Below, piece by piece: positions 26,732 to 34,593 of a stretch of 64,000 nucleotides of DNA. The number at the start of each line of letters is the position of its first letter. The first letter of the stretch is position 1. Source of the stretch: Lentzea sp. NEAU-D7 (lineage in GTDB: Bacteria; Actinomycetota; Actinomycetes; Mycobacteriales; Pseudonocardiaceae); the NCBI RefSeq assembly GCF_026242055.1, contig NZ_JAPJDL010000026.1, forward strand, positions 51,711-115,710. Reading direction: 5' to 3'. The notes under the pieces were generated by a model. That model searched no databases and was not told the origin of the DNA. It saw only the letters and a list, made by a program, of their open reading frames with translations. Made by a program: the position numbers and the translations under genes.

Positions 26732-26772
26732 TGCGGCAGTCGACCAGAACGCCCTTAACGCCCGCTAATTCG

Positions 26773-27342
26773 TCATCTCAATCCGGCCAGCACGAAGTCG
26801 GCGATCTCCCCTGCCAGCTGCGCGGGCGTCTTCTGACCGTCCGGCCGGAACCACATGGGCAGCTGGTTCACGACGCCCAGCGCGATCCGCACGACGGTGT
26901 CCGCGGGCACGACGGAGCTGAACTCGCCGTCCGCCTGCCCCTTCTCCACGACGGCGAGGAACGTCTCGTGGTAGCGGCGGCGTTCGGCGCGGAAGTCCGT
27001 CATCCGGTCCTCGCCGAGCCGGTGCAGCTCCCGGACGAACACCGCCGTCTCGTCGACCCGTTCGGCCGTCGAGACGACGAGCGACGCCAGGATCTCGCGC
27101 ACCGTCTCGGCGGCGGACAGACCGAGGCCGATGATCCGGTCCATGTCGGCGGACTGGGCCGTGATCAGCAGCCGGTAGATCTCGAAGAGCAGGTCGTCCT
27201 TCGAGCGGAAGTAGTGGTACAGCGCGCCCTTGGTGACCTCGGCGGCCTTGACGATCTCCTGCACCGAGGTCGCGTCGTAGCCCTGCGACGCGAACAGGCG
27301 CACGGCCGCGTCGATGATCTTCTGCTCGGTCGCGCTGGGCAC
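26773..27342 (-). CDS. TetR family transcriptional regulator
   Basis: A 189-residue TetR repressor. The HTH occupies residues 5-50 (QKIIDAAVRLFASQGYDATS, VQEIVKAAEVTKGALYHYF), followed by a ligand domain with the KstR2-like ending FVLAGLR. GTG start, 3 nt after the stop of the LLM oxidoreductase gene, so it is the second gene of that operon. The perfect 16-nt palindrome at 28330-28345 upstream of the operon is its likely autoregulatory operator. Ligand unknown; acyl-CoA-type effectors are common in this branch. Confidence 0.9.
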   Translation of the reverse strand: MPSATEQKIIDAAVRLFASQGYDATSVQEIVKAAEVTKGALYHYFRSKDDLLFEIYRLLITAQSADMDRIIGLGLSAAETVREILASLVVSTAERVDETAVFVRELHRLGEDRMTDFRAERRRYHETFLAVVEKGQADGEFSSVVPADTVVRIALGVVNQLPMWFRPDGQKTPAQLAGEIADFVLAGLR

Positions 27343-27345
27343 GGG

Positions 27346-28296
27346 TTATTCCCGGGGTGCGAGCGCGCGTGCCTGCTCGGCCTGGTCGCCCCCGGTCGGG
27401 AGCAGCGCGATGATCGGCGTGTCGACCCCGTTGGCCTGGTATTCGGCCACGCGGCTGCGGCAGTGGTCGAGCGACCCGTGCACGACCAGCGCGTCCACGA
27501 CCTCGTCCGGGATCGCCTTCGACGCGGCCTTGCGGTCGCCCGCCGCCCACGCCTCGTGCATCGGGCGCAACGCCTCGCCGCGGCCGAGCCAGTCGTGGAA
27601 CGCCGCGTAGGCCGGCACGGTCAGGTACGTGCTGATCAGCATGCGGCCCAGGGCCCGCGCGGCGTCGGCGTCCTCGGTCGGGCACACGAAGATCCGTGCC
27701 GCGAGCTCGGCCTCGCCCAGTTCCTCACGCACCTTCGGCACGTCGGAGGCGGCGAGCCAGTTCGTGATCGCGCCGTCGGCCTCGCGACCGGCCAGGCGCA
27801 GCATGTTGGGACGCAGGGCCGCGAGCATGATCGGCACCTTCTCCGCGGGCGGGCGCTCCAGCTTGAAGCCCTTCACCGAGAACGTGTCGTAGTCGGCGGA
27901 GACCTTCTCGCCCGCCAGCGCGGCCTTCAGGAAGCGCAGCGTGTCGCGGGTGCGCTTGAACGGCTCCTCGAACGGGATCGCGTTCCAGCGCTGCACGATG
28001 GCGGGCGACGACGAGCCGATGCCCAGCACGAACCGGCCGCCGGTCACCTCCGCGAGCGTCGCGGCGGTCATCGCCAGCGTGGCCGGGCCACGGGTGTAGA
28101 CGGGCGCGATCGCCGTGCCGAAGCGCAGCTCGGAGGACCACTGCGCGGCCAGGGCGAGCGGCGTGAACGCGTCGGTGCCGGTCGTCTCGGCCGACCACAC
28201 GTCCGTGTAGCCGAGCCCGGCGAGCTCGGACACGAGCGCGCGGTGCTCCAGCACCGGCACACCGATCAGCGGCAGCGTGATTCCCCAACGAGCCAT
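27346..28296 (-). CDS. LLM class F420-dependent oxidoreductase
   Basis: A 316-residue luciferase-like monooxygenase fold protein: WGITLPLIGVPVLEHRALVS, GTAIAPVYTRGPATLAMTAA and GRFVLGIGSSSPAIVQRWN are the flavin/F420-binding patterns of the actinobacterial LLM family. It probably performs an F420-dependent hydride transfer on an unknown substrate. TGGAGGCATTC precedes the ATG. First gene of an operon with the TetR gene, under a palindromic operator. Confidence 0.9.
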   Translation of the reverse strand: MARWGITLPLIGVPVLEHRALVSELAGLGYTDVWSAETTGTDAFTPLALAAQWSSELRFGTAIAPVYTRGPATLAMTAATLAEVTGGRFVLGIGSSSPAIVQRWNAIPFEEPFKRTRDTLRFLKAALAGEKVSADYDTFSVKGFKLERPPAEKVPIMLAALRPNMLRLAGREADGAITNWLAASDVPKVREELGEAELAARIFVCPTEDADAARALGRMLISTYLTVPAYAAFHDWLGRGEALRPMHEAWAAGDRKAASKAIPDEVVDALVVHGSLDHCRSRVAEYQANGVDTPIIALLPTGGDQAEQARALAPRE

Positions 28297-28329
28297 GAAT
28301 GCCTCCAGTTCAGGACTTGGAGGTCACCC

Positions 28330-28345
28330 TACCGACCGGTCGGTA
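28330..28345. promoter_or_regulatory. Perfect TetR-type operator
   Basis: TACCGACCGGTCGGTA is a perfect 16-nt palindrome, 34-49 nt upstream of the LLM gene start and just beyond the stop of the O-methyltransferase gene (28357). ACCGACCGGTCGGT cores are typical of actinobacterial TetR operators, and the second gene of the operon encodes a TetR protein. Confidence 0.75.
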
Positions 28346-28356
28346 TGCCCACAACC

Positions 28357-29013
28357 TCACCTCTTGCGCGCCATGGTCAGCCCGTCCGCGATCGGCACCA
28401 GCACCGACTCGACCCGCGTGTCGGCGAGCACGAACCTGTTGAAGGCGTCGATCGCGGCGGCGTTGCCCTCGGGCTGCTCGTCGGCCGCCTCTCCGTAGTA
28501 AAGGGTGTTGTCGGCGAGCAGCAGGCCGCCCTGGCGCACGCGCGGGACCAGCAGGTCCCAGTAGTGGACGTACCCGACCTTGTCCGCGTCGATGAACACC
28601 AGGTCGATGACCGGTTCCTCCGGCAGCTCGGCCAGCGTCTGGGCCGCCGCGCCGAGCCGCAGGTCGATCCGGTCGCGCACGCCCGCCGCCTGCCACGCCT
28701 CCTCCGCGATGGAGGTCCACTCGGCGGAGACGTCGCAGGTGATGACCTTGCCGGACGGGGGAAGTGCCTGCGCGAACGCCAGCGTGGAGTAACCGGTGTA
28801 GGTGCCGATCTCGACCACGGTCTGCGCGCCGGTGATCTTGACCAGCAGCGACAGCAGCACCGCCTGCTCGTGCGGGATCTGCATCTCCGCCGAGTCGCCG
28901 AGCTCCAGCGTGCGGGCGATGAGCTTCTCCTGCACCGCGCTGGGCCGGCCTGCCTGCTCGCGCACGTAGCGGTAGATCTGCGGGGTCATGACCACGGCCT
29001 TGAAGTCGTTCAC
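28357..29013 (-). CDS. Caffeoyl-CoA O-methyltransferase-like (class I, cation-dependent)
   Basis: A 218-residue SAM-dependent O-methyltransferase of the CCoAOMT/catechol type. SAM loop TVVEIGTYTGYSTLAFAQ (65-82); acidic motif VFIDADKVGYVHYWD (139-153), whose Asp binds the divalent metal; second metal motif LLADNTLYYG (166-175). Such enzymes methylate one hydroxyl of vicinal diphenols such as caffeoyl-CoA or catechols. GTG start after GAGAAGG, 13 nt behind the preceding gene: last gene of the predicted phenylpropanoid operon. The context (ammonia-lyase, CoA ligase) makes a caffeoyl-type substrate plausible. Confidence 0.88.
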   Translation of the reverse strand: MNDFKAVVMTPQIYRYVREQAGRPSAVQEKLIARTLELGDSAEMQIPHEQAVLLSLLVKITGAQTVVEIGTYTGYSTLAFAQALPPSGKVITCDVSAEWTSIAEEAWQAAGVRDRIDLRLGAAAQTLAELPEEPVIDLVFIDADKVGYVHYWDLLVPRVRQGGLLLADNTLYYGEAADEQPEGNAAAIDAFNRFVLADTRVESVLVPIADGLTMARKR

Positions 29014-29026
29014 GCGCGGCCTTCTC

Positions 29027-29785
29027 TCATAGTCGGGTGGCGAACGTCCTGAGTGTCTCTCCGTACTCGGGCCTCAGCGGGTGTTTCGCGAGGTCGTGAC
29101 CGATCGCGGACAAAACGGCGGCGCGGTGCGCGCGGTAGCGGCTCACGCACACGTTCTCCCGGCTGACGAGGAAGAACTCGTCGAACCGGGCCCGTTCGGC
29201 GTCGGTGGTGGACATGCGCGCACGGCCGGACTCGCGCAGCAGCGACGGGCCGTCGGGCACGAGCCTGCGCATGACCTCCATGTGCGCCACCAGGTTCGCC
29301 TTGCTCGCAGAGGTGAGCGGTTCGGCCGCCACGGACCCCAGAGCGGCACGTGCCCGGCGCAGCAGGCCGGGCAGTGGCTCGTAGTCACGCGCCCACCGCC
29401 CGCTGAACGCCGGGTCGAACGTCACCATCATCGGCCGGATGACGTCCTCGTACACCTCACGGGAACAACTGCCCGAATAGGCGAGCATCACCGAGTACGC
29501 GTCGTATCCAAGCGCAGCGAGGCGGGCCAGCCGGGAATCAGGCTCGCGTATCAGCCGATCGAGTGAAGCCGAAAGAAACCTCCAGACCAGGAACGCGCCG
29601 TGGTGGCCGAGGAACCACCGGTGCACGGCCTGCTCGACCGGGTCTTCCGGCGTGCGGATGGCGATCGGCGTCTGAAAGCAGCCGGTCGCGCACGGGATCA
29701 GGTCCGCGCCCGGCATCGGCAACCGCAGGACGGGCAGATCCACCCAGGTGTGCCCCCACCGGGGGAGGCAGACTGGAGCACTCAT
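29027..29785 (-). CDS. Unknown protein; candidate heme-dependent L-tyrosine 3-hydroxylase (LmbB2/Orf13-like)
   Basis: A 252-residue protein without signal or membrane segment. Distinct segments are VHRWFLGHHGAFLVWRFLSA (55-74), YDAYSVMLAYSGSCSREVYE (94-113), IRPMMVTFDPAFSGRWARDY (116-135) and a C-terminal RENVCVSRYRAHRAAVL (209-225). From memory these resemble actinobacterial proteins labelled L-tyrosine 3-hydroxylase, the heme-histidine family first known from lincomycin and anthramycin biosynthesis; I cannot verify this here, and the protein is shorter than those (about 300). Candidate ligands: H55, H61, H62, H220. Its ATG overlaps the lyase stop (TGATG), so the two are coupled. If correct, it would supply L-DOPA to the lyase. 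Confidence 0.5.
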   Translation of the reverse strand: MSAPVCLPRWGHTWVDLPVLRLPMPGADLIPCATGCFQTPIAIRTPEDPVEQAVHRWFLGHHGAFLVWRFLSASLDRLIREPDSRLARLAALGYDAYSVMLAYSGSCSREVYEDVIRPMMVTFDPAFSGRWARDYEPLPGLLRRARAALGSVAAEPLTSASKANLVAHMEVMRRLVPDGPSLLRESGRARMSTTDAERARFDEFFLVSRENVCVSRYRAHRAAVLSAIGHDLAKHPLRPEYGETLRTFATRL

Positions 29786-31293
29786 CAAGCACACTCCACT
29801 TCGGACACGAGACTGTCGAGTACGTCCGCCACCCGGCCCAGCGCGGTGTCGAGAGGCCGGTCCTCCGCGATCGGTGGCACCTCGTCCGCGAGCCGGTCGA
29901 ACACCGCCGCGAGCCGCGTCCCCTGCGGACGGCGCGCACCGACGTGCACCGCCTGGCGCAGCGCGATCGCGAGACCCGCGTGCAGGTACCGCAGCAGGCG
30001 CGCCTGGTCGAGCGCCGTCAGCGCGGCCTGCGTGCCGAACGGGACGACGTCCTGGTTGTGCAGGTTCGTCGGCAGGCTCTGCGTCGAGGCCGGTGTGGCC
30101 GCCCTGCGCATCGCCGCCACGGTGGCGGTCGCGCAGAGCTGGACTCCCTGCAGCGCGTGGTGGTGGCCGGGCAGCGGGCTCAGCATCGGCGGCAACCCGT
30201 TGCTGCGGTGGGGATCCACCAGCAGGTCGAGCTGGCGTTCGGCCAGGTTGCCCAGCTGCACCAGGGCGACGTTGAGCTGGTCGGCCGCGAAAGCGCTGGG
30301 CTGGCCGAAGAAGTTGCCGCCGTGCACGACCTCCCCGGTCTCCGGGAAGAACAACGGGTTGTCGCTCACCCCGTTGAGGTCGCGGCGCACCACCTCGTCG
30401 GCGTGCCGCACGCTCGTGCCGGCCGCTCCGATCAGCTGCGGTGTGCACCGGATGCTGTACGGCTCCTGCAACGGGCGCGCACCGGATGGCGTACTGCCTT
30501 CGAGCCAGGTCCTGATGGACGCACCCGATTCAGCGACGTCCGGATGCCCGAACGCGGCCAGTAGTCCAACCGAGGTGAACTCGGTGCCGCAGCCCAGGAC
30601 GTCGGTCATCAAGGCGGACAACAACTCCGCCGTCCGGCGTGCGCGAACCGCCTGCGCGACAGCGAGTCCGAGTGCTGCGGCGGTCACCGAAATGCCGTTC
30701 ACCAGAGCGAGCGCGTCACGCCCGTCCAACGCGAGCTTCTTGAGCCCGGCCAGTGCAAGCGCTTCCACGGCGGGCATGAGCCGCCCCTGGAAGAACGCGT
30801 TCCCGTTACCGCGCAAAGAATGTGCCACGTAGGCGAGCGGCTGGAGGTCGCCGCTCGCACCGAGTGAGCCCAAACGTGGTACAGCTGGGGCGAACTCGGT
30901 GTCCAGCATGGCAGTCAGCGAGTCCACGACCTGCTCGGACACTCCGGATCGCCCTTGCGCCAACGAGAACAGCCGCGCGAGCACGGCAGCGCGAGCGACG
31001 TCGGGCGGCAGCAGTTCACCGTGGCCGACGATGAGGTGGAAGAGGGTGTTGTCACATTGACCGGCGCTGTCCGGACGGCCAGCGAACTCGACGAGCGGGC
31101 CGAAACCCGTTGTGACGCCGTAGATCGCGCGTCCGGACGCGCTGACTTCGAGCACGAACCCGCGGCAGCGCGCGATCCGGTCGCGCACGTCCGCCGGCAG
31201 GTCGACGTGCAACGGGTCGCGGGCGAGTTCGAGGTGAGCCGGTTCGAGGTGCGCGGCCAGATTCAGGGCAGCAGGGGATGTTCCGACAGGCAC
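29785..31293 (-). CDS. Aromatic amino acid ammonia-lyase, predicted tyrosine/DOPA ammonia-lyase
   Basis: A 502-residue MIO-dependent lyase. The MIO cofactor forms from A146-S147-G148 in GSLGASGDLQPLAY; the catalytic Tyr lies in AIYGVTTGFGPL (Y58); substrate-side motifs include LVNGISVTAAAL and QEPYSIRCTPQLIG. The selectivity loop reads NTLFHLIVGHGE: H86-L87 occupies the place of the His-Leu pair of tyrosine ammonia-lyases, where histidine lyases have Ser-His and phenylalanine lyases Phe-Leu. Expected reaction: tyrosine to p-coumarate, or DOPA to caffeate. AGGAGG sits 4 nt before the GTG. Third gene of the operon, 96 nt after the SDR gene. An aminomutase cannot be excluded. Confidence 0.85.
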   Translation of the reverse strand: MPVGTSPAALNLAAHLEPAHLELARDPLHVDLPADVRDRIARCRGFVLEVSASGRAIYGVTTGFGPLVEFAGRPDSAGQCDNTLFHLIVGHGELLPPDVARAAVLARLFSLAQGRSGVSEQVVDSLTAMLDTEFAPAVPRLGSLGASGDLQPLAYVAHSLRGNGNAFFQGRLMPAVEALALAGLKKLALDGRDALALVNGISVTAAALGLAVAQAVRARRTAELLSALMTDVLGCGTEFTSVGLLAAFGHPDVAESGASIRTWLEGSTPSGARPLQEPYSIRCTPQLIGAAGTSVRHADEVVRRDLNGVSDNPLFFPETGEVVHGGNFFGQPSAFAADQLNVALVQLGNLAERQLDLLVDPHRSNGLPPMLSPLPGHHHALQGVQLCATATVAAMRRAATPASTQSLPTNLHNQDVVPFGTQAALTALDQARLLRYLHAGLAIALRQAVHVGARRPQGTRLAAVFDRLADEVPPIAEDRPLDTALGRVADVLDSLVSEVECA

Positions 31294-31389
31294 GACGCCT
31301 CCTGAGGACTTGGGGAGCCACTCGCGACGATCCCGGTTGACCGGTAGGTGAGGAAGGGCCTTATGTACGCATCAAACGAGGAAAATTTC

Positions 31390-32115
31390 TCAGCTGTCCT
31401 TCGGCGTGATCACGCCGCCGGAGAGGTGATCGAACTCTCCGCGCACGATTCGGGCCAAAAGATCGGCCGACTGCTCCACCGGGGTGAACCTGCCCGCGGC
31501 GCGCTGAGACCTCGCCCACTCCGAGATCTTCCGCTGGTGCGGATCACCGGAGTCCATCTCGGCGCCGCGGCGCATCAGACCGATGTCGACCATGCCGGGG
31601 TCGTAGCACAGCACGGCGATCGGCCGGTGCTTCAGTTCGACCGCGAGGTTCTCGGTCAGCTTGATGACGGCCGCTTTGGACACCGAATACGCTGTGACAT
31701 AAGGCCATCGGTGCACACCGGCGTTGCTGACCACGTTGACGACCCGCCCGCTCGTCATCGTGCGGATGGCGGCGTTCGCGGCGAACGCGGTGCCGCGCAG
31801 GTTCACCTCGAACGTGTGCCACCAGTCGTTCTCGTCGACCTGCCACGTCGGACCGACCGGCCCGCCGAGCGCACCGTTGTTGACCAGCACGTCGATCCCG
31901 CCGAGGCTCTCGATCAGCTTGGCCGTCGCGTGCGGATCGCCGAGGTCCGCGACGTGCGTCTCGACGTCGGCGCCCTGGGCCTTCAGCTCGGCCTCGGCGA
32001 TGCCGAGCGCCTCCTCGTCGCGGCCGGTGAGCACGAGCTGATGCCCTTGCGCGGCAAGAACACCGCTGAACGCCCTGCCGAGCTCCTTGGCGCCACCGGT
32101 GATCAGCACCTTCAC
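31390..32115 (-). CDS. Short-chain dehydrogenase/reductase
   Basis: A 241-residue classical SDR: NAD(P) motif TGGAKELG (6-13), NNGAL (79-83, the NAG position), catalytic S130, Y143 and K147 (YSVSK). It starts with GTG overlapping the ligase stop (GTGA). In this operon it could reduce or oxidise a phenylpropanoid CoA-thioester side chain or a keto intermediate, for example a beta-hydroxy/keto step of C2 shortening; the substrate is not predictable. Confidence 0.88.
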   Translation of the reverse strand: MKVLITGGAKELGRAFSGVLAAQGHQLVLTGRDEEALGIAEAELKAQGADVETHVADLGDPHATAKLIESLGGIDVLVNNGALGGPVGPTWQVDENDWWHTFEVNLRGTAFAANAAIRTMTSGRVVNVVSNAGVHRWPYVTAYSVSKAAVIKLTENLAVELKHRPIAVLCYDPGMVDIGLMRRGAEMDSGDPHQRKISEWARSQRAAGRFTPVEQSADLLARIVRGEFDHLSGGVITPKDS

Positions 32116-33539
32116 TGCGAGTCGTCCTTCAGCAGGCGACGGAGGATCTTGCCCGACACGGACTTCGGTATCTCTCGCACGAACTCAACCTGGCGGATCT
32201 TCTTGTACGGCGCCACCTCTGCCGCCACGAAGGCCATGAGTTCATCCGAAGTGACGTCGCCTTGCGTGACCACGAAGGCTTTCGGGATCTCGCCGTTAAC
32301 CCGATCGGGCGCACCGATCACCGCCGCGTCCCGGACGGCGGGATGGCGCCGCAACACGGCCTCCAGCTCGGCGGGTGCGACCTGGTACCCCTTGTACTTG
32401 ATCATCTCCTTGATGCGGTCGACGACGTGGAACCGGCCGTTGTGGACGCGCACCAGATCACCGGTGCGCAGCCAGCCGTCCACGAAGGCGTCGCGCGTGG
32501 CCCGTTCGTCGCCGAGGTAGCCCTGCATGACCTGCGGGCCGCGGACGAGCATCTCGCCCTCCGCCGCGTCCGTCGTGGTGCCCGGCTCGACGATCCGCGC
32601 CTCCGTGCCGGGACACAGCACGCCGACGCTCGCGGGGTCGGATTCCACGTCACCGTCGAATGTCTGGTGCGTGCCACCGGCTTCCGTGAGGCCGTACCCC
32701 TGGCGGACGGGCGCCTGGAGCTTGCGCTCGGCTTCCCGGCGGACGGCGTCGTCGAGGGGCGCGGCGCCGCAGAGGACGAGCTTGAGGCCGAGTTCCGGGA
32801 CGGGTTCCCCGTGGTCCGCGATGGCCGCGGCGAGCGGAGGCACCAGGAACGCCCGGGTGACCCGGTGTTCTCCGAGGCACCGCAGGTAGGTGCCGGCGTC
32901 GCAGCGGGGCATGGTGACGAGCGTGGCGCCGCCGAGCAGACCGGAGTTGAGGATGATCGTGAAGCCGTAGACGTGGAAGAACGGCAGGTTCGCGGCGAGG
33001 ACGTCGGTCTCGTCGATGCGCCAGCCCGGCCGGTGCTGCTCCAGGTTCGCGACGAGCGCGCGGTGGCTGTGGCCGACGGCTTTGGTGAGACCGGTGGTGC
33101 CGCTGGAGAAGAGGACGACGGCGGTGCCGTCCGGGTTTCCCGGTGGGAGCGAATCGGTGTCGCTGGAGGGAAGGTCGTCGAGGTCGAGCGTCCGCGTGAC
33201 GTTCGCGAGCTGCTTCAGCCGCGCGATCTCCGGCGGCGTGAGCATCGGGTTGATGAGCGCGGCCGTCGCTCCCGCGGCCAGGACGGCGTGCAGGCCGACG
33301 GCGTACCGCGGTCGGTTGGCACTGGCGATCGCGACGGTGTCACCGGGTCTGATCCCGTTGTGCACCAAGCCTTTGGCCGTGGTCTCGACCTGTCGGGCCA
33401 ACTCGGCGTACGTGAGCGACTCGCCCGTGACGGCGTCCACGAGAGCGAGCTTGTCGTTGTGCCACGCGCGTTCCAGCACGTGCTCCGGAACGGTGCGGTC
33501 GGGAACGGCCACCGCGGGCAGGGGGCTGCGGTAGATCAC
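32112..33539 (-). CDS. 4-coumarate:CoA ligase-like acyl-CoA synthetase
   Basis: A 475-residue ANL-superfamily enzyme that would activate a carboxylate as adenylate and transfer it to CoA. Motifs: P-loop FSSGTTGLTKAVGHSH (144-159), adenine motif QGYGLTEAGG, hinge GWLRTGDLVRV, DRIKEMIKYKGYQVAPAELE and catalytic lysine in SGKILRR (K464). GTG 33539 gives MIYRSPLPAVAVPD, the standard opening of actinobacterial 4CL homologues; the ATG at 33575 is rejected because it lies in a hairpin loop. Promoter-proximal gene of the five-gene operon. The neighbouring lyase makes p-coumarate or caffeate the likely substrate. Confidence 0.85.
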   Translation of the reverse strand: MIYRSPLPAVAVPDRTVPEHVLERAWHNDKLALVDAVTGESLTYAELARQVETTAKGLVHNGIRPGDTVAIASANRPRYAVGLHAVLAAGATAALINPMLTPPEIARLKQLANVTRTLDLDDLPSSDTDSLPPGNPDGTAVVLFSSGTTGLTKAVGHSHRALVANLEQHRPGWRIDETDVLAANLPFFHVYGFTIILNSGLLGGATLVTMPRCDAGTYLRCLGEHRVTRAFLVPPLAAAIADHGEPVPELGLKLVLCGAAPLDDAVRREAERKLQAPVRQGYGLTEAGGTHQTFDGDVESDPASVGVLCPGTEARIVEPGTTTDAAEGEMLVRGPQVMQGYLGDERATRDAFVDGWLRTGDLVRVHNGRFHVVDRIKEMIKYKGYQVAPAELEAVLRRHPAVRDAAVIGAPDRVNGEIPKAFVVTQGDVTSDELMAFVAAEVAPYKKIRQVEFVREIPKSVSGKILRRLLKDDSQ

Positions 33540-33556
33540 TGGCTCGGCTCCGGTCT

Positions 33557-33589
33557 CCACACCGCCGCACCTCATGCACGGCGGCGTGG
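33557..33589 (-). terminator. Hairpin between M23 peptidase and 4CL-type genes
   Basis: CCACACCGCCG (33557-33567) pairs with CGGCGGCGTGG (33579-33589), 10 of 11 positions, and GTCTCC arms extend the stem outward after a 3-nt bulge. It lies behind the M23 gene stop (33634) and before the ligase start, so it probably ends the M23 transcript. Confidence 0.55.
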
Positions 33590-33633
33590 CCGGAGACTAT
33601 CGGGACTTCTCGTGATCGTGTGACCGAGTTCGG

Positions 33634-34593
33634 TCAGAGACTCACACCGCGCTCGGCGAGCCAGCCGACGGGGTTGACCTTCTGCCCGCCCGCGACCCAC
33701 ACCTCGAAGTGCAGGTGCGGCCCGGTCGACTGGCCGCGGTTGCCGATCGTCGCGATCTGCTGCCCGGACTTGACCTTCGCACCCTGCTGGACGTCGATGG
33801 TGTTCATGTGCCCGTAGACGGTGATGGTGCCGTCCTCGTGCTGAACGCGGACCCACAGCCCGAACCCGGACGCGGGCCCGGCCTCGACGACGGTGCCGTC
33901 CATGACGGCGACGATCGGCGTGCCGATGGCGTTCGCGATGTCGACGCCGTTGTGGCTGGTTCCCCAGCGGGCACCGAACCCGGACGTGAACGAACCCTGG
34001 GCGGGCCGCACGCACTTGGGCCGCTTCGCCTCCTCCTCGGCGGCGATCCGCGCGGCCTCGGCCGCGAGCCGCGCAGTCTCGGCCTTGGCGGCCTCCTGCC
34101 GCTTCACGAAGGCGCCCTCGGCGGACTTGAGCGCCTCGGCGACGTGGAACTGCGCCTGGATCTGCTCGGCCTGCAGCAGCTTGCGCGCCTCGGAGCCGGT
34201 GTTGACGTCGTGGATCGTCTGCGGACCCTGCGGCGCCTGCTGCTCGGCGGTCATCGCCGCAGCGAGGTTCTTGGTGGCCGCAACGGGGGCGATGATGCGG
34301 TCGACCGGGGTGACGGCGGTAGCCGCCTGAGCGAAACCGGCGCCGGCGAGGGCGCCCGCGGCGACCACCACCGCAACAGCCTTCTTGCGGTCCAGGTCCA
34401 CCTTGGTGATGACGTCGACCAGGGGACCCTTCGAACGATGCCGTGCCAAACCTGTCTCCATGCACTCGGGGGAGTTCGGATGACCGCGCTTCGCCTGGCG
34501 TCGGGGGGCCTGGCTGCGGGCTTCGGGGGCCCGGTGGTGGACTGGACCGCTTCGGGGGAGATCCGTGTCCTTGCGGTTATCGAACCGTGACAT
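33634..34593 (-). CDS. M23 family metallopeptidase
   Basis: A 319-residue membrane-anchored or exported lysostaphin-type endopeptidase. A basic N-terminal region is followed by a hydrophobic segment (KAVAVVVAAGALAGAGFAQA), a helical Ala/Glu-rich coiled region (about 160-215) and a C-terminal peptidase domain with the zinc motifs SHNGVDIA (HxxxD) and GPHLHFEVW (HxH). It cleaves peptidoglycan cross-bridges. ATG 34593 is chosen; ATG 34461 would leave only the hydrophobic part. A neighbouring class A PBP gene is upstream on the same strand, beyond the repeat-rich gap. Confidence 0.85.
   Translation of the reverse strand: MSRFDNRKDTDLPRSGPVHHRAPEARSQAPRRQAKRGHPNSPECMETGLARHRSKGPLVDVITKVDLDRKKAVAVVVAAGALAGAGFAQAATAVTPVDRIIAPVAATKNLAAAMTAEQQAPQGPQTIHDVNTGSEARKLLQAEQIQAQFHVAEALKSAEGAFVKRQEAAKAETARLAAEAARIAAEEEAKRPKCVRPAQGSFTSGFGARWGTSHNGVDIANAIGTPIVAVMDGTVVEAGPASGFGLWVRVQHEDGTITVYGHMNTIDVQQGAKVKSGQQIATIGNRGQSTGPHLHFEVWVAGGQKVNPVGWLAERGVSL

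What the first reader, a model, noticed from the sequence alone, without database searches (positions are those of the whole stretch)
28357..33539. Five-gene operon encoding a possible bacterial phenylpropanoid (caffeoyl/feruloyl-CoA) pathway
On one strand, with overlapping or near-touching junctions except one 96-nt gap: 4CL-like ligase (GTGA overlap) SDR, tyrosine-ammonia-lyase-like MIO enzyme (TGATG overlap) unknown 252-residue protein, 13 nt, CCoAOMT-like methyltransferase. The lyase has the His-Leu selectivity pair at 86-87. These parts fit tyrosine -> (DOPA) -> caffeate -> caffeoyl-CoA -> feruloyl-CoA, comparable in logic to the saccharomicin Sam genes of Saccharothrix, but with a different candidate hydroxylase and an SDR. 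I know of no described cluster with this order.
Basis: partly seen in the sequence, partly recalled or inferred. Interest (0 to 1): 0.8.

Follow-up and report, generated by a model that had tools for sequence, protein, structure and literature searches.

The report
Bacterial tyrosine-to-ferulate gene module
A soil bacterium of the genus Lentzea and nearly all its sequenced relatives carry a small gene set that probably turns the amino acid tyrosine into a plant-like phenolic acid such as ferulate, using an unusual haem enzyme for one step, although nobody has yet tested it.

Summary
The five genes exist as described. The "unknown 252-residue protein" is a haem-dependent tyrosine hydroxylase homologue (TyrH/LmbB2 family: phmmer 3.4e-24; model Z 22.5 to S. 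sclerotialus TyrH). The lyase family's best solved match is 2o6y, which I recall as Rhodobacter tyrosine ammonia-lyase. Best reading: tyrosine -> DOPA -> caffeate -> ferulate or isoferulate, hydroxylated at the amino-acid stage, unlike saccharomicin Sam8/Sam5. First, it is no obligate five-gene route to feruloyl-CoA: in the 23 Lentzea genomes with this TyrH, lyase and methyltransferase are always beside it, but the ligase is retained in 17 and the SDR in 15. Second, His-Leu is not conserved: 17 of 23 orthologues have His-His. The trio recurs at 21 of 37 other TyrH loci, 16 of them with ligase and SDR, which are one fused protein at 12; 12 of the 21 have a Zn-alcohol dehydrogenase. This hints at a monolignol-like extension. 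All chemistry is inferred from sequence. Novelty: new variant of a known kind.

The parts
32112..33575 (-). Acyl/aryl-CoA ligase (AMP-binding), 4-coumarate:CoA-ligase-like; start codon ambiguous (33575, 33560 or 33539)
   Evidence: PF00501 1.8e-71; 4CL 3a9u 2.5e-78, just behind acyl-CoA synthetase CG6178 1.7e-78; retained in 17 of 23 Lentzea, one of them (L054) in two pieces
31390..32115 (-). Classical short-chain dehydrogenase/reductase; homologues are fused to the ligase in sister clusters
   Evidence: PF00106 6.4e-38; retained in 15 of 23 Lentzea; fused at 14 of 37 other loci
31419..31488 (-). 3' part of the SDR gene, kept as a remnant in most genomes that lost the SDR; possible upstream control region of the lyase (inferred)
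   Evidence: Remnants of the SDR 3' part in 7 of 8 SDR-less loci; alignment. Synonymous constraint in intact copies is not significant
31321..31361 (-). Conserved non-coding block in the 96-nt gap, likely promoter or leader of the lyase-TyrH-OMT unit (inferred)
   Evidence: Mean column identity 0.95 over 41 nt in 23 genomes, against 0.79 for the 28 nt before it and 0.86 for the 27 nt after it; only one match in the own genome
29785..31293 (-). MIO-type aromatic amino acid ammonia-lyase, tyrosine-lyase-like (His86-Leu87, Gln414); substrate Tyr or DOPA (inferred)
   Evidence: PF00221 2.5e-127; profile best match 2o6y 328.9 bits vs tyrosine aminomutase 291 and histidine lyase 1gkm 290
29027..29785 (-).
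   Evidence: phmmer 3.4e-24 to 7kqr; Z 22.5 to 7kqs, next family 9.8; R56-W57-x3-H61 and H168 invariant in 22 sequences
28357..29013 (-). Cation-dependent catechol/caffeoyl-CoA-type O-methyltransferase (PF01596)
   Evidence: PF01596 3.2e-53; best solved relatives 5lhm/5log 4e-50, best chain named caffeoyl-CoA O-methyltransferase 2.2e-28

Best explanation
A genus-wide phenylpropanoid module. The haem protein hydroxylates L-tyrosine to L-DOPA, probably with H2O2; the MIO lyase removes ammonia to give caffeate; the methyltransferase makes ferulate (or isoferulate). This trio is the functional core. The upstream 4CL-like ligase and SDR are an ancestral but dispensable extension that would activate the acid as a CoA ester and reduce it, probably to an aldehyde. 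Shown: gene content, homology, conservation, co-inheritance, loss pattern. Inferred: every reaction, the order hydroxylation before deamination, the methylation position, the SDR substrate, and separate transcription of the trio.
For: TyrH family by sequence and fold, with the RWx3H motif discussed for LmbB2 in PMC3851162 (passages). Lyase profile nearest to 2o6y (recalled as Rhodobacter TAL; deposited as a putative histidine ammonia-lyase), with His86 and Gln414; the genome's strongest PF00221 match, taken as HutH, has Ser-His and Glu there. Ligase and methyltransferase families. Lyase and methyltransferase lie beside TyrH in 23 of 23 Lentzea with this TyrH (window plus 22 loci; these loci were found through TyrH) and at 21 of 37 other TyrH loci, with a ligase at 19 and an SDR at 16 of those 21. 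TyrH, MIO and OMT distances correlate (Mantel r 0.83-0.90, 0 of 5000 permutations as high; not corrected for shared species history). Ligase-SDR fusion at 14 of 37 loci.
Against: No activity or metabolite data. The window's lyase passes no curated NCBIfam cut-off, and the best-scoring of those models is histidine ammonia-lyase (350.5 bits, cut-off 524), ahead of the aminomutase and tyrosine-lyase models. Lyases with TyrH beside them do not form one clade against those without, and no position separates the two groups by my criterion, so a DOPA-specialised lyase is not visible in sequence. His-Leu is His-His in 17 of 23 orthologues. The methyltransferase is nearer to 5lhm/5log (recalled as SafC, which acts on DOPA-type substrates) than to caffeoyl-CoA O-methyltransferases, so methylation could come before deamination. 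Engineered TyrH accepts indole (PMC13096859, passages), so the family is not bound to amino acids in principle.
Confidence: 0.6

Rival explanations
1. Deamination first: the lyase makes p-coumarate from tyrosine, and the haem protein has evolved to hydroxylate p-coumarate to caffeate, as Sam8 then Sam5 do in saccharomicin.
For: The lyase profile best matches 2o6y, recalled as a tyrosine lyase. Lyases of the same clade occur without TyrH nearby, so tyrosine may be the common substrate. Sam8/Sam5 order is precedent (PMC3469384, passages).
Against: LmbB2 of this haem family hydroxylates tyrosine itself (PMC3851162, passages), and titles of solved relatives name substrate-bound or 3-fluoro-L-tyrosine complexes. 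RWx3H and H168 are invariant in 22 sequences, seven of them from loci without an ammonia-lyase.
Confidence: 0.2
2. Methylation at the amino-acid stage: tyrosine -> DOPA -> O-methyl-DOPA -> deamination to ferulate or isoferulate.
For: The methyltransferase's best solved relative is 5lhm/5log, recalled as SafC of Myxococcus, which methylates DOPA-type catechols.
Against: PF01596 enzymes are often promiscuous for catechols (established knowledge), so the nearest relative does not fix the step. Nothing in the gene order tells the stage.
Confidence: 0.12
3. The MIO enzyme is an aminomutase, and the module makes a methoxylated beta-tyrosine-type unit, as in enediyne clusters.
For: Tyrosine aminomutases were the top single-sequence matches in the PDB (2qve 8.4e-66; 2o6y 2.5e-63).
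Against: The family profile prefers 2o6y by 37 bits. The window's lyase has Pro66 where the aminomutase chain has Glu in TTGYGE. Score against the aminomutase model is 284 bits, cut-off 501.
Confidence: 0.05
4. Two separate units that happen to adjoin: ligase-SDR serves fatty or aryl acid metabolism, and only lyase-TyrH-OMT is a pathway.
For: Ligase and SDR are lost independently of the trio (6 and 7 losses by parsimony). A conserved non-coding block precedes the lyase.
Against: Ligase and SDR homologues recur beside the trio at 19 and 16 of 21 other loci and are fused to each other at 12 of them; the fused ligase's four best PDB matches are named 4-coumarate:CoA ligases.
Confidence: 0.15

Closest known systems
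Saccharomicin caffeate genes sam8/sam5/sam7 of Saccharothrix espanaensis
   Same: Actinomycete tyrosine ammonia-lyase and ring hydroxylase leading to caffeate, with an acyl-CoA-synthetase-like Sam7 (PMC3469384, passages)
   Different: Sam5 is a 4-coumarate 3-hydroxylase acting after deamination; here the hydroxylase is a haem TyrH homologue expected to act on tyrosine, and a methyltransferase and an SDR are added
LmbB2 / Orf13 / TyrH haem tyrosine hydroxylases of lincomycin, anthramycin and related clusters
   Same: Same family, fold and conserved histidines; DOPA is the expected product
   Different: There DOPA goes to ring cleavage and alkyl-proline units (established knowledge); here it sits with an ammonia-lyase and an O-methyltransferase. 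The window protein is 252 aa against 316 for the solved chain
Tyrosine ammonia-lyase 2o6y (recalled as Rhodobacter sphaeroides TAL)
   Same: Best profile match, same His-Leu pair in the window copy, same TTGFGPL and NQDVV segments
   Different: Most Lentzea orthologues have His-His at the selectivity pair
Plant monolignol pathway (4CL, CCoAOMT, CCR, CAD)
   Same: 4CL-like ligase, CCoAOMT-family enzyme, an SDR and, in sister clusters, a Zn-alcohol dehydrogenase
   Different: The SDR is of the classical type, and the ADH's 25 listed solved relatives are named alcohol, isopropanol, formaldehyde or zinc-binding dehydrogenases, none CAD. No product is known

Membership tests
Haem-dependent tyrosine hydroxylase (TyrH/LmbB2) | Sequence and fold similarity over most of the chain | tested here: met
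   3.4e-24 over residues 55-241; model pLDDT 88.9, Z 22.5 over 236 residues, next family Z 9.8
Haem-dependent tyrosine hydroxylase (TyrH/LmbB2) | Conserved RWx3H and a second invariant histidine as haem ligand (ligand assignment recalled; the LmbB2 paper discusses RWx3H) | tested here: met
   R56, W57, H61 and H168 invariant in 22 sequences
Haem-dependent tyrosine hydroxylase (TyrH/LmbB2) | Haem binding and conversion of tyrosine to DOPA | not testable with these tools
   Needs protein
MIO tyrosine ammonia-lyase | Ala-Ser-Gly that forms the MIO group, and family domain | tested here: met
   A146-S147-G148 invariant in 16 sequences; PF00221
MIO tyrosine ammonia-lyase | His-Leu selectivity pair | tested here: inconclusive
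   Met in the window copy; 6 of 23 Lentzea orthologues HL, 17 of 23 HH; HL in the 15 sister-cluster lyases of alignment A2
MIO tyrosine ammonia-lyase | Score over a curated TAL model | tested here: not met
   FlxA 254.6 vs 700, BagA/FevW 232.3 vs 1000; also below the histidine-lyase, aminomutase and PAL cut-offs. So 'TAL-like', not a named TAL family
Histidine ammonia-lyase | Ser-His pair and Glu at the position of Gln414 (rule recalled) | tested here: not met
   HL or HH and Gln in 23 of 23; the genome's strongest PF00221 match (L001, taken as HutH) has S-H and E
Histidine ammonia-lyase | Score over the curated hutH models | tested here: not met
   350.5 vs 524 and 345.3 vs 539, though these are the best-scoring NCBIfam models
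4-coumarate:CoA ligase | Closest similarity to 4CL among characterised ligases | tested here: inconclusive
   4CL 3a9u 2.5e-78 but CG6178 1.7e-78; a sister fused ligase has 4CLs as the four best matches
Caffeoyl-CoA O-methyltransferase | PF01596 domain | tested here: met
   3.2e-53
Caffeoyl-CoA O-methyltransferase | Nearer to CCoAOMT than to other methyltransferases of the family | tested here: not met
   5lhm/5log 4e-50, norbelladine methyltransferases from 1.7e-33, best chain named CCoAOMT 2.2e-28
Saccharomicin-type caffeate pathway | Sam5-type 4-coumarate 3-hydroxylase in the cluster | tested here: not met
   None of the five proteins matches a flavin hydroxylase in Pfam; a TyrH homologue is there instead
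Plant-type cinnamoyl-CoA reductase | Extended SDR type (type recalled) | tested here: not met
   Classical adh_short 6.4e-38, Epimerase only 1.4e-07

The most novel reading that the evidence does not exclude
Actinobacteria evolved their own monolignol-like route: a haem peroxygenase makes DOPA, a DOPA ammonia-lyase (His-Leu or His-His pocket) makes caffeate, a catechol methyltransferase makes ferulate, and a ligase-SDR (one protein in many sister clusters) plus a zinc alcohol dehydrogenase reduces it to coniferyl aldehyde and alcohol. In some clusters this is followed by a multicopper oxidase, probably secreted, or a wax-ester-synthase-like acyltransferase that couples or esterifies the product. 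The Lentzea operon is a version being trimmed back to ferulate.
Probability: 0.2. Interest if true: 0.85.

Novelty: new variant of a known kind. Interest (0 to 1): 0.62.

Why it matters
Little is known of how actinobacteria make caffeate or ferulate (a review says so: PMC8773403, passages). If the reading holds, hydroxylation at the amino-acid stage by a haem enzyme that needs no NAD(P)H is a third logic beside plants and Sam8/Sam5, it predicts a bacterial DOPA ammonia-lyase, and it gives a compact enzyme set for making ferulate. Presence in 23 of 24 genomes of one genus, between the same neighbours, suggests a general role in the organism and not a strain-specific antibiotic. The ligase-SDR fusion makes a bacterial aldehyde- or alcohol-forming branch directly testable.

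Tried and rejected
Five-gene unit as one obligate pathway: rejected, because ligase and SDR are lost repeatedly. One ligase counted as present (L054) aligns in two pieces and may itself be broken. 'Retained' means a match over nearly the whole protein; I did not check each copy for small defects.

Ligase moved elsewhere in the six genomes without it: not found. Their best other match is 45-47% identical, and two genomes that keep the operon's ligase have a like match at 46%.

DOPA-specific lyase clade: not seen. TyrH-linked and unlinked lyases are mixed in the tree, some nodes are poorly supported, and no position is at least 90% fixed in the linked group and at least 80% fixed to another residue in the unlinked one (a few genes are in the set twice).

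DNA-level constraint on the SDR 3' end in intact copies: not significant (16 of 154 windows as low; 1717 of 20000 random draws). The control-region idea rests on remnants and on the non-coding block only.

Regulon of the conserved block: one match in the own genome with up to 3 mismatches.

Histidine lyase and aminomutase: argued against, equivocal. CCR or CAD identity of SDR and ADH by sequence: not found.

Promoter scan: no sigma-70-type site in 28000-34000; not informative for this GC content. Terminator-like sites: 4 found, shuffles mean 2.1, sd 1.5. Repeat search: nothing I could use. My Pfam query for the neighbour at 26765-27685 was in the wrong frame and found nothing.

Literature: no paper on this module in the listings (open-licence PMC only; most listed papers not opened).


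Full report
THE OBSERVATION. All five frames lie on the minus strand at the stated places, with the stated junctions. The ligase start is open (33575, 33560 or 33539). The genome is 9.3 Mb in 43 contigs. I take it as Lentzea because 19 of the 20 named loci with close TyrH matches (83-94%) are titled Lentzea and one 'Nocardia sp. NRRL S-836'.

THE UNKNOWN PROTEIN. Pfam (E up to 1) and NCBIfam (E up to 0.01) give nothing for it. A phmmer search of PDB sequences gives haem-dependent L-tyrosine hydroxylase at 3.4e-24; titles name Streptomyces sclerotialus. An AlphaFold2 model from 22 sequences has mean pLDDT 88.9. Its best structural match is the same enzyme, Z 22.5 over 236 residues, against 9.8 for MarE and 9.0 for tryptophan dioxygenase. 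R56-W57-x3-H61, the motif discussed for LmbB2 (PMC3851162, passages), and H168 are invariant in 22 sequences, seven of them from loci without an ammonia-lyase. LmbB2 makes DOPA from tyrosine (same paper). Oxidised TyrH works with H2O2 (PMC11791213, passages).

THE LYASE. A profile of 16 relatives matches 2o6y best (328.9 bits), then 7tqr, a probable histidine lyase (297), tyrosine aminomutase (about 291) and histidine lyase 1gkm (290). 2o6y is deposited as a putative histidine ammonia-lyase; I recall it as Rhodobacter tyrosine ammonia-lyase, and 2o78 in the same list differs from it by Phe for His at the pair. The single window sequence ranks aminomutase slightly first. Among NCBIfam models histidine lyase scores highest (350.5 bits), but no curated cut-off is reached by any. 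Pro66 stands where the aminomutase has Glu, and Gln414 where the presumed HutH of this genome has Glu. The His-Leu pair is real in the window copy, but of 23 Lentzea orthologues 6 have His-Leu and 17 His-His. His86, expected to face the para-hydroxyl (recalled), is kept in all 23. A second histidine could face a meta-hydroxyl; that is speculation.

THE OTHER ENZYMES. The ligase is AMP-forming and 4CL-like. The SDR is classical. The methyltransferase is PF01596, nearest to 5lhm/5log and farther from caffeoyl-CoA O-methyltransferases.

CONSERVATION IN THE GENUS. 23 of 24 genomes of the genus, own included, have a TyrH orthologue at 83-100% identity. These loci were found through TyrH, so the next counts are conditional on it. 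In all 22 others the lyase and methyltransferase stand beside TyrH, between the same M23-peptidase and luciferase-like neighbours. Ligase and SDR do not share this. Counting the window, the ligase is retained in 17 of 23 (L054 in two pieces) and the SDR in 15 of 23; 12 have both and 3 neither; remnants of a lost gene are seen at 9 of the 11 trimmed loci. On a five-gene tree this needs 6 ligase and 7 SDR losses, if both genes were there at the start (some nodes weakly supported). In the six genomes without it the ligase was not found elsewhere. The one genome without TyrH, G019, has no lyase match above 38% identity, and between the same flanking genes it carries two other genes. Median pN/pS, uncorrected: OMT 0.19, lyase 0.23, ligase 0.30, TyrH 0.31, SDR 0.35 (23, 23, 16, 23 and 15 sequences).

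CONTROL REGION. The 96-nt gap contains 41 nt (31321-31361) with mean column identity 0.95 in 23 genomes, against 0.79 in the 28 nt before it and 0.86 in the 27 nt after it. Seven of the eight loci without an SDR keep a piece of its 3' part. I infer a promoter or leader of the trio. Synonymous constraint in intact SDRs does not support an element inside the gene, and the block has one match in the own genome.

OUTSIDE THE ORTHOLOGUES. I examined 37 other TyrH loci: the 29 named loci that are not Lentzea orthologues and 8 of the 18 fetched for that purpose (the own genome's second copy among them), leaving out ten that looked like duplicates of named ones. Lyase, TyrH and methyltransferase occur together at 21 of 37. 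Ten others (L123-L132, named) have TyrH without these partners; they resemble alkyl-proline clusters (recalled). Of the 21, 19 have a ligase within 8 kb, 16 an SDR, 12 a Zn-alcohol dehydrogenase and 5 a wax-ester-synthase-like protein; in 12 the ligase and SDR are one protein of about 730-770 aa, as also at two loci without a lyase. The named genera among the 21 are Lentzea, Kutzneria, Saccharothrix, Nocardia, Amycolatopsis, Actinoallomurus and Actinokineospora, plus one uncultured actinobacterium. Several of the 21 are close relatives, so they are not 21 independent events. Distances of TyrH, lyase and methyltransferase correlate at 0.83-0.90 over 22 loci, without correction for species history. 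In the own genome a second such module (L066) has TyrH, methyltransferase, ligase-SDR fusion, Zn-ADH, a multicopper oxidase and a SnoaL-like protein, but no lyase within 8 kb; families were named on its relative L068.

RESULTS AGAINST A SPECIALISED DOPA LYASE. In a tree of 33 TyrH-linked and 13 unlinked lyases (some genes twice, such as L004 and L154; L005 is distant), the two kinds are mixed, and no position separates them by my criterion. So the lyase may be a general tyrosine or DOPA lyase. The order of hydroxylation and deamination rests on what the TyrH family is known to do.

MECHANISM. Most likely: tyrosine + H2O2 -> DOPA (TyrH), DOPA -> caffeate + NH3 (MIO lyase), caffeate -> ferulate or isoferulate (methyltransferase), with ligase and SDR, where present, making the CoA ester and reducing it. 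The enzyme families are shown; the reactions and their order are inferred. The SDR step is the least certain.

COMPARISON. In saccharomicin, Sam8 deaminates tyrosine and Sam5 hydroxylates coumarate (PMC3469384, passages). Here the hydroxylase belongs to another family and should act earlier. [quoted passage not shown] The listings of my searches showed no paper on the module, in a library limited to open licences.

VERDICT. A real, conserved, probably functional variant of bacterial phenylpropanoid biosynthesis. The new points are the identity of the hydroxylase, the three-gene core, the varying lyase pocket and the ligase-SDR fusion in sister clusters.

Noticed in passing
window 28330-28345, with 27346-28296 and 26773-27342: A perfect palindrome TACCGACCGGTCGGTA lies between the methyltransferase and an F420-type luciferase-like oxidoreductase (TIGR03841) followed by a TetR-like regulator (by eye). 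Its 14-nt core occurs once in each of the 22 other operon-carrying Lentzea stretches, at matching places, and not in the stretch of G019, which lacks the operon.
   Followed up: partly
G000:C26, L066 2392-10261: Second module in the own genome: TyrH, methyltransferase, ligase-SDR fusion, Zn-ADH, SnoaL-like protein and multicopper oxidase, without a lyase nearby; the oxidase relative in L068 begins with a twin-arginine-like signal (by eye).
   Followed up: partly
L154 6513-18173 (G000:C42): Another relative of the lyase sits in a cluster with a two-component system, two flavin-oxidoreductase-like proteins (Pyr_redox_3), an AMP ligase, an FMN dehydrogenase, a P450 and an antiporter; the same gene families stand together in L156, L157 and L159 from two other genera of the family.
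   Followed up: partly
L074 15497-16879, L109 15806, L117 11649: A tyrosine phenol-lyase/tryptophanase-like protein (PF01212 in L074) stands near TyrH at three loci.
   Followed up: no
G000:C40:341003-342334 and G000:C2:284484-285815: Two MIO-lyase matches with identical scores (398.7 bits) on two contigs: a duplicated gene or a duplicated stretch of assembly.
   Followed up: no
L113, L114, L120, L079, L083: Wax-ester-synthase/DGAT-like acyltransferases beside the phenylpropanoid trio, which could esterify an aryl alcohol.
   Followed up: no
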